59,921 bases of DNA, taken from Eubacterium sp. (lineage in GTDB: Bacteria > Bacillota > Clostridia > Lachnospirales > Lachnospiraceae). The stretch spans positions 1-59,921 of the forward strand of contig JAFYHN010000057.1 in assembly GCA_017539165.1 (NCBI GenBank). The letters are read 5' to 3'. Shown one piece after another: positions 14,511 to 44,909 of this stretch. The notes beneath the pieces were generated by a model. It was not told where the DNA came from. It made no database searches and saw only the letters and a program-made list of their open reading frames with translations. The position numbers were made by a program, and so were the translations under genes. Position 1 is the stretch's first letter, and every line of letters starts with the position of its first letter.

Positions 14511-15555
14511 TAACATGGAAACGAAGCTTTTGGATGATTCTGCTGAAAGTATAGAGATTGCAGCAGACATATTAAAAAATGGAGGGCTTGTTGCATTTCC
14601 GACAGAGACAGTATATGGATTAGGCGGTGATGCACTGAGACCAGAGGCATCGAAGAAGATATATGCAGCTAAAGGAAGACCTTCAGACAATCCGTTGATA
14701 GTTCATATAGCAGACGTAGAGTCGGTAAATGAACTGGCAGTAGATATATCAGATAGTGCTAGACATCTGATGGAAGCCTTCTGGCCAGGACCTCTTACTA
14801 TCATTCTTAAAAAGAAGGAAGTAGTTCCTTCAGAGACAACAGGTGGACTTGATACAGTAGCGATACGTATGCCTTCACATCCAGCTGCTATGGAATTGAT
14901 AAGAAAAAGTGGAGTTTATATTGCAGCTCCATCTGCAAATACATCAGGACGTCCTTCTCCAACAACTGCTCAGCATGTTGTTGAAGATATGAATGGAAGG
15001 ATTGACGCAATAATAGACGGAGGCCCTGTCGGGATTGGAATAGAATCTACTATAGTAGATATGACGGGTGAAGTTCCGACTATATTAAGACCTGGATATA
15101 TTACGAAAAGAATGCTTGAGGAGATAGTTGGAGAAGTTGAGATTGATAAGGCGATAATCGAGCCAGATCCTAATCTCAGACCTAAAGCTCCAGGCATGAA
15201 GTATACACATTATGCGCCTGCAGGAATTCTTACTATAATAGAAGATAAAGCAGAACCCGGTAAGGTAACTGAGAATGTAGTAAGAGAGATAAACAGAAGA
15301 GCTGCTGAGAAGGAAAAAACAGCGATTCTTACTACGGAAGATAATGCACATCTATATCAGGCAGAGAATATAATACTTCTGGGAAAAGAGGGTGACGGAA
15401 AAACTGTTGCCGCAAGATTATATTCTGCACTAAGAGAGTGCGATGCTCTTGGGATTGAATACATTTTTAGTGAGAGCTATTATAGAGATGAGCTTGGTGG
15501 AGCGATAATGAACAGACTGCTTAAGGCTGCTGGACACAGAGTAGTGAAGGTATAA
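14500..15555 (+). CDS. tsaC: L-threonylcarbamoyladenylate synthase (Sua5 type)
   Basis: Makes threonylcarbamoyl-AMP for the t6A modification of ANN-decoding tRNAs. The YrdC domain shows AFPTETVYGLGGDA, KGRPSDNPLIVHI and the PSANTSGRPSPT segment. A C-terminal Sua5 domain (about 215-351, after KAPGMKYTHYAP) makes this the long form. The start is a GTG at 14500, preceded by GAGAGG at 8 bases. GTG 14503 and ATG 14515 are alternatives that change only the first few residues. It overlaps gatD by 11 bases. Confidence 0.93.
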   Translation: MVTDNMETKLLDDSAESIEIAADILKNGGLVAFPTETVYGLGGDALRPEASKKIYAAKGRPSDNPLIVHIADVESVNELAVDISDSARHLMEAFWPGPLTIILKKKEVVPSETTGGLDTVAIRMPSHPAAMELIRKSGVYIAAPSANTSGRPSPTTAQHVVEDMNGRIDAIIDGGPVGIGIESTIVDMTGEVPTILRPGYITKRMLEEIVGEVEIDKAIIEPDPNLRPKAPGMKYTHYAPAGILTIIEDKAEPGKVTENVVREINRRAAEKEKTAILTTEDNAHLYQAENIILLGKEGDGKTVAARLYSALRECDALGIEYIFSESYYRDELGGAIMNRLLKAAGHRVVKV

Positions 15556-15615
15556 AAGAACTTAACGTTCCCTGAGGGGCGCGAAGGATAAAAGATACAT
15601 ACAAGGAGGAGCAAA

Positions 15616-16044
15616 ATGAAAATATGTATAGGTTCTGATCATGGTGGTTACGCTTTAAAACTTGAACTGATCGAGCATCTTAAAGCCAGAGGTTTTGAAG
15701 TCAGCGATGTAGGATGCGATAGTGAAGCATCTTGTGATTATCCTATATATGCTAAGGCAGTTACAGATATCATTACAGAGAAAAAAGCTGATCTGGGAAT
15801 ACTTGTTTGCGGAACAGGTATTGGAATGTCAATGGCAGCAAATAAAGTAGAAGGAATTCGTGCAGCACTTTGTCATGATGTTTTCTCAGCAAAGGCTACA
15901 AGAGAACACAATAACGCGAATATACTGTGTATGGGTGCTCGTGTAGTTGGAGCGGGACTCGCAGAGATGATAGTTGATACATTTGTAGATACACCATTCT
16001 CGAATGATGAGAGACATATAAGAAGGATAAGTTATTATTCGTAA
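15616..16044 (+). CDS. rpiB: Ribose-5-phosphate isomerase B
   Basis: Interconverts ribose 5-phosphate and ribulose 5-phosphate. The family N-terminus GSDHGGYALK, the anion-binding CGTGIGMSMAANK and the conserved HNNANILCMGARVVG are all present. 142 aa is standard. AAGGAGGA lies 5-6 bases before ATG. It is the last gene before the structured element at 16051. Confidence 0.95.
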   Translation: MKICIGSDHGGYALKLELIEHLKARGFEVSDVGCDSEASCDYPIYAKAVTDIITEKKADLGILVCGTGIGMSMAANKVEGIRAALCHDVFSAKATREHNNANILCMGARVVGAGLAEMIVDTFVDTPFSNDERHIRRISYYS

Positions 16045-16050
16045 ATAAAA

Positions 16051-16282
16051 CACTTTTCACAGTAACTAAAAACTCCACTCGTAAGTCCGCATCGGACTCG
16101 AAGTTTTATTCAGCAAGCTGATAAAACATCTTGTACGATGCTCTACCGCTGCTACCGCAGCACTTACTCGTGTGTTTTTAGTCACCTGCTATCGCAGGTA
16201 CACCAAAAAAACGAGTTATATGACTCCAAGAATACAAGTATTCTTGTCGCATATACTCGTTTTTTGGTTACTGTGAAAAGTG
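16051..16282 (+). repeat. 232-bp multi-hairpin element closed by 16-bp perfect arms
   Basis: CACTTTTCACAGTAAC (16051-16066) and its exact complement GTTACTGTGAAAAGTG (16267-16282) enclose at least five internal hairpins. These are AGTCCG/CGGACT (16084-16098), TTTTATTCAGC/GCTGATAAAA (16104-16126), GCTGC/GCAGC (16148-16161), ACCTGC/GCAGGT (16184-16199), and a long one, 16203-16267, with CAAGAATAC/GTATTCTTG at its tip and ACGAG/CTCGT at its base. ACTAAAAAC (16065-16073) also pairs with GTTTTTAGT (16174-16182). It could be a structured RNA, a MITE-like non-coding mobile element, or both. The last hairpin ends in six T and may terminate rpiB transcription. No clear target duplication flanks it. 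Confidence 0.75.
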
Positions 16283-16311
16283 ACAATTTTCCACATTATG
16301 TAAAGTAACGG

Positions 16312-16340
16312 TTGACAAGAGGGCATTGTGGTGATATCAT
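16312..16340 (+). promoter_or_regulatory. Sigma-A promoter of the NlpC/P60 gene
   Basis: TTGACA (16312-16317), exactly 17 bp, TATCAT (16335-16340). The predicted start point is near 16347, which is the first base of the first WalR-type box. Confidence 0.75.
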
Positions 16341-16346
16341 ATTGAA

Positions 16347-16394
16347 TGTAACAAAATTGTAACAAATAGGTTAAGAATGTAAAGAAATTGTAAC
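16347..16394 (+). promoter_or_regulatory. Two WalR (YycF)-type direct-repeat boxes
   Basis: TGTAAC-N5-TGTAAC at 16347-16363 and TGTAAA-N5-TGTAAC at 16378-16394. Both match the WalR consensus TGTWAH-N5-TGTWAH at every fixed position. The boxes start 31 bp apart, about three helical turns, and a further lone TGTAAC lies near 16413. They lie at and downstream of the predicted start point, a position that in Bacillus usually goes with repression. No walRK is in the window. Confidence 0.7.
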
Positions 16395-16439
16395 AAAGCA
16401 CAAGATATTGTGTGTAACATAGACATAGGAGGTTACATA

Positions 16440-17993
16440 ATGTATAAACCATCAAAGAGAGTTATGGTAGTTGGACTCGCTGCCGGATTGCTTGCTTCAT
16501 CAGTAGGAGTGGTTCCTAATGTACAGGCAAAAGGACAGAACTATGACTCATCGAATGTTGGAATCGCCGATAAGGTAGGAGATTATATTCAGAACGGTGC
16601 TTCGGCTGACCCGATAGCTGATCTTACATCAGGAAAGGTTACAACAGCAGACGTTCAGGCTTCATTTAAAGCGGAAGCAAAGAAGAAAGAAGAAAAGAAA
16701 AACGCTGCTACAACAACAGATGCACCTAAGACAAAGCCTACTGATGCTAAGGTATATCCTCAGTTTCAGGATAGAGCTGTAGTAGCTGCTGATGATTCAG
16801 TTAATATCAGAAAAGAGGCCAGTACAGATTCAGAGGTAGTTGGAACACTTCAGAGAGGTGGTATCTGTCTTGTTGATGAGATCGGTAAGGAATGGTCAAA
16901 GATTGAATCAGGAAGTTGTGTAGGATATATAGCTAATCAGTTCCTTAAGTACGGAGATGATGCCGGTGATTGGAGCGATCATAATGATATTATGAGATAT
17001 GCAACAGTCAATACAGAAACTCTTAAGGTTCGTGAATCAAAGGATGAATCAAGTAACTGTGTAACTCTTATTCCTAAGGGAGAAGAGTTCTATGTATACA
17101 GCAATAGTGGTGAATGGATTGAGCTTTACATTGATGATGATCTCAGAGGATTTGTAAAGAGTGAATATGTTGATGTTCGTTATGACAATCCAAGAGCTAT
17201 ATCTGTTGAAGAGCAGGAAGAGATTAATCGTCAGATTGAAGAAGAAAAGCGTTTGGCTCAGGAAGAAGCAGATAGAGCTTGGCTTGAATATCTTGCTGGA
17301 CAGAATGAAAAAACAGTTGTTGCTACAGATGATGTAGATGAAGATACAATACCTACTACTGATAGTGAAGAAGTTTCATTAGCATTAGGAAATGAAGATG
17401 AAACTACGGAGCCATCTAATGATGAGGATGTATCCGAGAATGACGATACTACTACTTCGGATGAAGATGCTTCTGAAGAAACATCATCAAACGATGAAGA
17501 TGAGGCACCTGCAGAAGAGACTCCAGCAGAGACACCTGCAGAAACACCTGAAGAGACTCCAGCAGAGGAGCCTGCAGAAGAATCTCCAGCTCCAGCACCT
17601 GCTGTACCTGCAAGTGCGTCAGGACAGGCACTAGTTGATTATGCACTTCAGTTTGTTGGTAACCCATATGTATGGGGTGGTGAAGATCCTAATACTGGTG
17701 CAGACTGTTCAGGATTTGTAATGTATCTGGTTTATAATCTTGCAGGAATCTCACTTCCTCATGATGCAGAGCTACAGGCAAATTATGGTACAGAAGTTAA
17801 TCTGAGTGAGATTCAGCCTGGTGATCTGTTATTCTATGCTGGTGGTGGATATGCTATAGGACATGTTGCTATCTACATGGGAGATGGTCAGATTGTACAC
17901 GCATCTAACTCAGCTCCATACCCTGTTGGTGGTATCAAGGTAGGTAATTATGATTACAGAACTCCTTGCAAAGCAGTGAGAATAATGCCTTAG
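16440..17993 (+). CDS. Secreted NlpC/P60 peptidoglycan endopeptidase with two SH3b domains
   Basis: Cuts peptide stems of peptidoglycan. The start at 16440 follows TAGGAGG. It has a signal peptide (about 1-29, ending VQA), an Ala/Lys-rich segment, SH3b domain 1 (about 117-180, VNIRKEASTDSEVVG), SH3b domain 2 (about 190-248), a coiled EEQEEINRQ stretch, and a very acidic then Pro/Glu/Thr-rich linker (about 290-390). The NlpC/P60 domain is at about 397-517 with C423 (ADCSGF), H475 and H487. 517 aa in total. Regulation by a WalR-like factor fits its cell-wall role. It has a terminator of its own. Confidence 0.93.
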   Translation: MYKPSKRVMVVGLAAGLLASSVGVVPNVQAKGQNYDSSNVGIADKVGDYIQNGASADPIADLTSGKVTTADVQASFKAEAKKKEEKKNAATTTDAPKTKPTDAKVYPQFQDRAVVAADDSVNIRKEASTDSEVVGTLQRGGICLVDEIGKEWSKIESGSCVGYIANQFLKYGDDAGDWSDHNDIMRYATVNTETLKVRESKDESSNCVTLIPKGEEFYVYSNSGEWIELYIDDDLRGFVKSEYVDVRYDNPRAISVEEQEEINRQIEEEKRLAQEEADRAWLEYLAGQNEKTVVATDDVDEDTIPTTDSEEVSLALGNEDETTEPSNDEDVSENDDTTTSDEDASEETSSNDEDEAPAEETPAETPAETPEETPAEEPAEESPAPAPAVPASASGQALVDYALQFVGNPYVWGGEDPNTGADCSGFVMYLVYNLAGISLPHDAELQANYGTEVNLSEIQPGDLLFYAGGGYAIGHVAIYMGDGQIVHASNSAPYPVGGIKVGNYDYRTPCKAVRIMP

Positions 17994-44866: not shown

Positions 44867-44909
44867 AAAATATGACAGTTGAAATCTGATTTCAACTGTC
44901 ATATTTTTG
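44867..44909 (+). terminator. Rho-independent terminator
   Basis: AAATATGACAGTTGAAAT pairs exactly with ATTTCAACTGTCATATTT around a CTG loop, then TTG. A very long perfect stem, likely active in both directions. Confidence 0.9.

What the first reader, a model, noticed from the sequence alone, without database searches (positions are those of the whole stretch)
16051..16282. Compact 232-bp multi-hairpin element with perfect 16-bp closing arms
The outer arms are 216 bp apart yet exactly complementary, and inside are at least five hairpins plus a second long-range pairing (16065-16073 with 16174-16182). This is far more structure than a terminator needs. It could be an undescribed structured RNA, or a MITE-like element, and it sits just upstream of a WalR-type promoter.
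Basis: seen in the sequence. Interest (0 to 1): 0.7.

Follow-up and report, generated by a model that had tools for sequence, protein, structure and literature searches.

The report
Dispersed branched RNA-like mobile repeat
The 232-bp multi-hairpin stretch is one copy of a scattered, transposon-like repeat family of Lachnospiraceae bacteria that keeps an elaborate fold while its sequence changes, and it looks like a distant cousin of a catalogued RNA of unknown function (Clostridiales-1) that turns out here to travel as a miniature transposon.

Summary
In detail: 16051-16282 has exact 16-bp closing arms, the second long-range pairing and a fold far beyond chance; I count four hairpin loops, not five. 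It is one of about 24 places in this genome, with relatives in 38 of 61 genus genomes, own included. On 53 aligned cores, 42 of 47 base pairs change on both sides; orthologous sites show paired changes in place. The minus strand folds best and is usually co-directional with both neighbouring genes (63 of 119 copies, versus 18 opposite). The family shares architecture with Rfam Clostridiales-1 RNA (RF01699), though the window copy does not match that model. RF01699 copies in this genus include ~201-bp MITEs: 17-bp inverted ends, exact 7-8-bp target duplications in 10 of 14 cases, and an IS1182-like insertion sequence with the same ends. Best reading: an old MITE-like element whose minus-strand transcript would fold into a branched RNA between genes. 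Transcription, effect and transposase are unproven; no target duplication was found for the window family.

The parts
16051..16066 (+). P1, left closing arm (TIR-like); common form in relatives TTACTATTCACRG
   Evidence: exact complement of 16267-16282; same arm, with paired changes, in other copies
16065..16182 (-). P2-P3 branch: long stem, GA/GA internal loop on the minus strand, inner three-way junction; most of the core modelled by R1/R2
   Evidence: fold; covariation on 53 relatives
16089..16141 (-). P4, long hairpin with variable stem and G(CUUG)C tip on the minus strand; short or missing in the short class
   Evidence: loop tally; alignment
16148..16161 (-). P5, hairpin with C(GGUA)G loop on the minus strand, followed there by conserved GUAGAG
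16183..16200 (-). P6, hairpin with C(GAUA)G loop on the minus strand (C(GNA)G or C(GNNA)G loops are the commonest in relatives)
16202..16268 (-). P7, long hairpin, sequence freely variable between copies, CUUG tip
   Evidence: different stem at the orthologous site of the sister genome
16267..16282 (+). P1', right closing arm
15616..16044 (+). rpiB-type sugar-phosphate isomerase gene; stop codon 6 nt before the element
   Evidence: Pfam PF02502; ORF
16312..16394 (+). promoter-like site (16312-16340) and two WalR-type boxes (16347-16363, 16378-16394)
   Evidence: consensus matches only
16440..17993 (+). SH3/NlpC-P60 protein gene
   Evidence: Pfam PF00877, PF08239

Best explanation
16051-16282 is a copy of an old, non-autonomous, MITE-like mobile element. 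Its closing arms P1 are the remains of terminal inverted repeats. Its inside specifies, on the minus strand, a branched RNA: a three-way junction of P2, P6 and P7, with a second junction carrying P4 and P5. Copies were spread in the past by a transposase acting in trans; this is inferred by analogy with the related Clostridiales-1 elements, for which an IS with the same ends was found. The copies persist mainly where their structured strand would be co-transcribed between genes, and pairing is kept by selection or by palindrome-templated repair. The likely effect is on the transcript: a very stable fold just after a stop codon or tRNA end that shields or separates upstream and downstream segments of an operon without ending transcription. 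Shown: family, fold, covariation, positions, orientation bias. Inferred: transposition mechanism, transcription, effect on mRNA. The window copy lies in the less common orientation, after rpiB and upstream of the next gene's promoter.
For: 27 rows of R1 at E<0.01 in this genome, 3 of them opposite-strand echoes of a palindromic arm, so 24 places, the weakest of them partial; 38 of 61 genus genomes at E<=0.01. Pair count on 53 cores: 88.9% of cells paired versus 32-41% when slid, 42 of 47 pairs with double changes, covariation 0.473 versus 0.05-0.10 slid and 0.156 shuffled. In-place paired changes at orthologous sites. Dispersal: L047 and L079, 96% identical over 233 bp on two contigs of this genome. 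Orientation: 63 of 119 copies with both neighbouring genes in minus-strand (S) sense, 18 of 119 both opposite; upstream stop to element median 7 nt in the 63; RF01699 elements 22 versus 3 of 39. The S strand folds more stably in 103 of 111 copies and has more G-U pairs in its folds, 260 versus 136, with C(GNA)G, C(GNNA)G and G(CUUG)C loops commonest. RF01699 as MITE: exact 7- or 8-bp duplications in 10 of 14 pairs of ends and an IS1182-like IS with the same ends.
Against: No target duplication in the window family: 59 elements, 5- and 7-mers at the shuffle mean, 8-mers weakly above it (15 of 300 shuffles as high). No transposase-bearing partner with its ends among the places read. The window copy is in the minority orientation. 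One-sided changes hardly favour an RNA strand: G-U on S 145 versus A-C 119 in 53 pairs of copies; on A4, 71 cells G-U-like on S versus 68 on the plus strand. No transcription data. Sites empty in this genome but filled in G021 mostly keep one arm, so they look like losses rather than pre-insertion sites.
Confidence: 0.6

Rival explanations
1. A domesticated cis-acting RNA regulator: the fold senses or binds something and controls the downstream gene, like a riboswitch or protein-binding leader.
For: Complex conserved junctions; position before start codons (median 42 nt in the 63 copies with both neighbours in S sense); sites shared by several genomes: tig-tRNA-greA, mnmE-mnmG, oadB-oadA (gene names by eye).
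Against: Neighbouring genes share no function: the largest groups of alike neighbours are 7 (greA, tig) and then 4 or fewer among 119 copies. About 24 places in this genome. Presence at one site changes between close species: 11 of 24 tig-greA loci have it, while G039 keeps one arm and G018 nothing although their GreA is 99% identical to that of a carrier. In the window the next gene has a promoter-like site of its own after the element.
Confidence: 0.13
2. A structured DNA rather than RNA: single-strand or cruciform folds are what is selected (for transposition or recombination), and perfect stems are kept by palindrome-templated repair.
For: Stems almost purely Watson-Crick (1462 of 1483 positions, by a method that favours such stems); no clear G-U strand bias in changes; cGNAg, cGNNAg and gCNNGc are also very stable DNA loops (recalled, from no call); DNA fold z -12.5.
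Against: Orientation bias relative to neighbouring genes; GA/GA loop and GNA/GNNA tips only on one strand, the one usually in gene sense.
Confidence: 0.15
3. A purely selfish repeat with no effect on its host; orientation bias arises because insertions in the other orientation are more harmful.
For: Losses that leave one arm, internal deletions (L014, L093, L388), tandem arrays (L137).
Against: Compensatory change in place at orthologous sites suggests more than neglect, unless palindrome-templated repair explains it.
Confidence: 0.12

Closest known systems
Clostridiales-1 RNA (Rfam RF01699)
   Same: Closing stem, long variable hairpin with G(CUUG)C tip, UGAG/CGAA stem with a GA/GA loop, AAGC[hairpin]GCGGA junction, several copies per genome, same orientation bias relative to genes
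   Different: Window copy gives no RF01699 row up to E 10; extra hairpin P5 in the second junction, P6 instead of the GGAUUGC third hairpin, different ends
MITEs mobilised in trans by an insertion sequence (here IS1182-like, for RF01699)
   Same: Short, inverted ends, multi-copy
   Different: No target duplication or partner transposase found for the window family; strongly branched, covarying inside
BOX, RUP, ERIC and Correia repeats
   Same: Folded interspersed repeats that can be transcribed as parts of operons and affect transcripts (passages of PMC3049150)
   Different: Other hosts; architecture and sequence not compared by any search here

Membership tests
Clostridiales-1 RNA RF01699 | Score over the curated cut-off (48 bits) | tested here: not met
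   window copy no row. Relatives: 6 of 20 loci at E<=1, 24-55.3 bits, one (L204) over the cut-off; 8 of 20 short-class loci 30.8-42.1 bits
Clostridiales-1 RNA RF01699 | Closing stem plus long hairpin with G(CUUG)C tip | tested here: met
   searches compared by eye with the model; in the window the G(CUUG)C tip is on P4, while P7 has A(CUUG)U
Clostridiales-1 RNA RF01699 | UGAG...CGAA stem with GA/GA loop and AAGC[hairpin]GCGGA | tested here: inconclusive
   by eye only: window minus strand has CACGAGTAAGT...GTAGAGC[P4]GCGGACTTACGAGTG; GA/GA loop and GCGGA present, AGAGC for AAGC, neighbouring letters differ
Clostridiales-1 RNA RF01699 | Third hairpin GGAUUGC-GGGA...GGAGCAAUCC | tested here: not met
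   absent from the window fold; model
MITE | Short repeat in many places of one genome | tested here: met
MITE | Terminal inverted repeats | tested here: met
   arms of relatives
MITE | Target-site duplication | tested here: inconclusive
   59 elements: no signal at 5 or 7, weak at 8 (15 of 300 shuffles as high)
MITE | Autonomous partner with the same ends | tested here: inconclusive
   not found by pattern in the own genome (36 places) or 16 chosen genus genomes (47 places); 13 places read in full
Intrinsic terminator | Stem followed by a T run | tested here: not met
   0 found in 15500-16600
Riboswitch / cis-regulator | Consistent association with genes of one function | tested here: not met
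   largest groups of alike neighbours 7, then 4 or fewer, among 119 copies

The most novel reading that the evidence does not exclude
A superfamily of transposon-borne RNAs, comprising Clostridiales-1 and the window family, carries one conserved RNA core (tandem G-A pairs, GUAGAG/GCGGAC junction, CUUG-capped arm). Different insertion-sequence ends mobilise it, and it inserts or survives in sense between operon genes because the core does something useful there, such as insulating transcripts or preventing polarity, so that Lachnospiraceae have repeatedly domesticated it.
Probability: 0.25. Interest if true: 0.75.

Novelty: new variant of a known kind. Interest (0 to 1): 0.52.

Why it matters
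It puts an orphan Rfam class in a new light. Clostridiales-1 is typed in Rfam as an sRNA gene and appears once in the main text of its discovery paper, in a table row 'y n n, Clostridiales, human gut' whose column headings I did not see (one passage of PMC2864571). In this genus many copies have the ends and target duplications of a MITE and share their ends with an IS1182-like insertion sequence. A second, more diverged family with the same architecture turns over its stems almost completely while junction letters persist. That makes testable whether mobile elements in gut and rumen bacteria spread structured RNAs that shape operon transcripts.

Tried and rejected
Intrinsic terminator: none found. 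Known Rfam family by direct scan of the window: none at the element. An IS partner with the window family's ends: own genome with one mismatch (36 places) and 16 chosen genus genomes exact (47 places, 13 of 16 genomes); I read 13 of these places in full (5 own, 8 others). The only pair a few kb apart among the listed exact places, G029:C8, encloses an ORF of 1177 codons that by eye does not look like a transposase (no family search done). G-U versus A-C as proof of an RNA strand: inconclusive. rpiB neighbourhood: rpiB-NlpC adjacency seen only in this genome and G021 among 30 loci, some cut by contig ends, so little in-place history for the window site. Literature: two searches for Clostridiales-1 / RF01699 listed 2 and 5 papers, none by its title or abstract start about mobility; searches listed nothing on this family by title. 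I saw passages of PMC2864571, PMC11109978 and PMC3049150, and search listings for the rest. The library holds only open-licence papers.

Rows dropped before counts: of 143 matches I used 119; left out were copies reached twice through overlapping loci, opposite-strand matches to the palindromic arm, and L092, L101, L103. Loop and fold tallies used 111 of the 119 (distinct, 125-245 bp). Context counts include tandem and orthologous copies, which are not independent, and rest on simple ORF picks. For RF01699 duplications one search used 7 of 20 fetched loci (11 lacked the right end, 2 lacked full flanks); one search found 16 pairs of ends and kept 14 by length. A4 is fitted to its model.

Full report
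Observation. The closing arms 16051-16066/16267-16282 and the second pairing 16065-16073/16174-16182 are exact. Folding is far better than shuffles on either strand and with DNA parameters. There are four hairpin loops: P4 16089-16141, P5 16148-16161, P6 16183-16200, P7 16202-16268.

A family. Blastn in the own genome found six further stretches at E<1e-11, 74-79% identical, covering mainly the left two thirds. A covariance model R1 (9 copies) gives 27 rows at E<0.01 in the own genome, 3 of them opposite-strand echoes of a palindromic arm, so 24 places, the weakest partial, and matches in 38 of 61 genus genomes. In 299 genomes drawn across the family, R2 (53 copies) matched 14 at E<=1e-3: this genome and 13 others, the latter with matches of 50-125 nt only (strict filters, 10 candidates scored per genome, so absences mean little). 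A 20-base probe of the P5 junction hit 33 stretches of the named genome collection: 30 are titled Lachnospiraceae, Robinsoniella, Eubacterium or Clostridia, several from rumen; 3 are Acidobacteria or Verrucomicrobia bins that I take for chance.

Anatomy. A long class (about 214-240 bp) has all stems; a short class (mostly 173-198 bp) has a short stub or nothing for P4. On the minus strand (S) the commonest hairpin tips are C(GNA)G (GAA 80, GTA 13, GGA 9, GCA 6), C(GNNA)G (GATA 6, GAAA 5, GTCA, GTTA and GTAA 3 each) and G(CTTG)C 18; rarer ones exist. The P2/P3 internal loop is GA opposite GA on S. S folds more stably in 103 of 111 copies. Stems differ freely between copies while junction letters stay.

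Covariation. On 53 cores 42 of 47 pairs have changes on both sides, 88.9% of cells pair (32-41% when slid), and the covariation score is 0.473 versus 0.156 shuffled. The alignment was fitted to the model, which flatters the structure. At orthologous sites, found by neighbouring proteins, pairs change together in place: window/L118, L082/L124, L083/L121 and others, beside uncompensated changes in each. In 53 similar pairs of copies, 748 double Watson-Crick changes stand against 145 G-U, 119 A-C and 548 other mismatches (pairs are not independent, and misalignment inflates the last class).

Position. Of 119 copies, 63 have both neighbours pointing in S direction, 18 both opposite, 31 divergent or convergent, 7 with one side open. 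In the 63, the upstream stop is a median 7 nt before the element (range -29 to 1170) and the downstream start a median 42 nt after it. In tig-tRNALeu-greA the element starts about ten bases after the tRNA: present, by eye, in 11 of the 24 loci where tig was found upstream (30 loci looked at of 49 matches); in G039 a single arm is left, in G018 nothing, although their GreA is 99% identical to that of the carrier G055. The window copy differs: it is in plus-strand sense after rpiB, and the next gene has a promoter-like site and WalR-type boxes beyond it. The same junction in the sister genome G021 carries two copies in tandem.

Gain and loss. Two copies of this genome on different contigs are 96% identical over 233 bp (L047, L079), so dispersal has happened. 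Six sites filled in G021 were asked in the own genome: all six lack a full element; at four (L106, L111, L113, L122) one P1 arm, by eye, remains at the junction, and two (L050, L108) are unclear. This looks like deletion of old palindromes rather than virgin sites, though a target resembling the arm is not excluded. Target duplications were not seen.

Relation to Clostridiales-1. Some relatives of the window element match RF01699 on the S strand: 6 of 20 loci at E<=1, with L204 over the cut-off (55.3 bits), L198 40.9, L203 35.8, L200 33.3, and 8 of 20 short-class loci at 30.8-42.1 bits. In reverse, R2 gave 11 rows at E<=1 over 39 RF01699 loci; 6 rows are below 0.001, from three contigs (L246 and L268 are the same stretch). 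The two share closing stem, CUUG-capped hairpin, a UGAG/CGAA-type stem and an AGC[hairpin]GCGGA junction. I take them for cousins; common descent is not proven, and the window copy is not a member by the curated score.

Clostridiales-1 as a MITE. RF01699 passes its cut-off in 46 of 61 genus genomes and has no match in 14 control genomes. G056 and G029 have near-identical copies with unique flanks. The commonest repeated unit is about 201 bp with ends GACATAAGTGTCAAAAG...CTTTTGACACCCACATC; other RF01699 copies lack the right end (11 of 20 fetched). Seven copies with both ends and flanks show a mean 6.43 of 7 matching flank letters versus 4.58 shuffled, 0 of 1000. In a wider set, 14 of 16 pairs of ends kept by length, 6 have exact 7-bp and 4 exact 8-bp duplications; 1 of 2000 shuffles reached the 7-mer mean. 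The same ends, with an exact 7-bp duplication ATTATAT, bound a 1867-bp element in G033 with a 554-codon DDE transposase (Pfam DDE_Tnp_1_6, DDE_Tnp_1, DUF772; NCBIfam IS1182 136 bits, below its cut-off of 270). I found no paper saying so in searches.

Reading. The window element is best seen as an old MITE-like carrier of a branched RNA of the Clostridiales-1 type. Family, fold, covariation, positions and the MITE nature of many RF01699 copies are shown; how the window family moved, that it is transcribed, and what it does to transcripts are inferred.

Noticed in passing
16312-16394: Promoter-like TTGACA-17-TATCAT followed by two WalR-type boxes upstream of an SH3/NlpC-P60 gene; the boxes lie downstream of the -10, as in repressed WalR targets (recalled).
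   Followed up: partly
L374:479-2345 (G033:C13): IS1182-like insertion sequence whose ends equal those of Clostridiales-1 elements, with an exact 7-bp duplication.
   Followed up: yes
L375:383-453 (G029:C2): 71-bp mini-element made only of the CUUG-capped hairpin and both ends, with a 7-bp duplication ATTTAAT.
   Followed up: partly
L137 (G011:C32:33705-34199): Four tandem short-class copies every 129 bp; by eye the inner ones lack P7.
   Followed up: no
L338, tig-greA spacer of G059: A different tandem hairpin repeat fills the same tig-tRNA spacer in another species.
   Followed up: no
44867-44907: A simple perfect hairpin, the only other place in the window with 16-mer inverted pairs less than 250 bp apart.
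   Followed up: no
L376, L377 (G029): Two Clostridiales-1 copies at different sites with the same extra stretch of about 108 bp inside the third hairpin.
   Followed up: no
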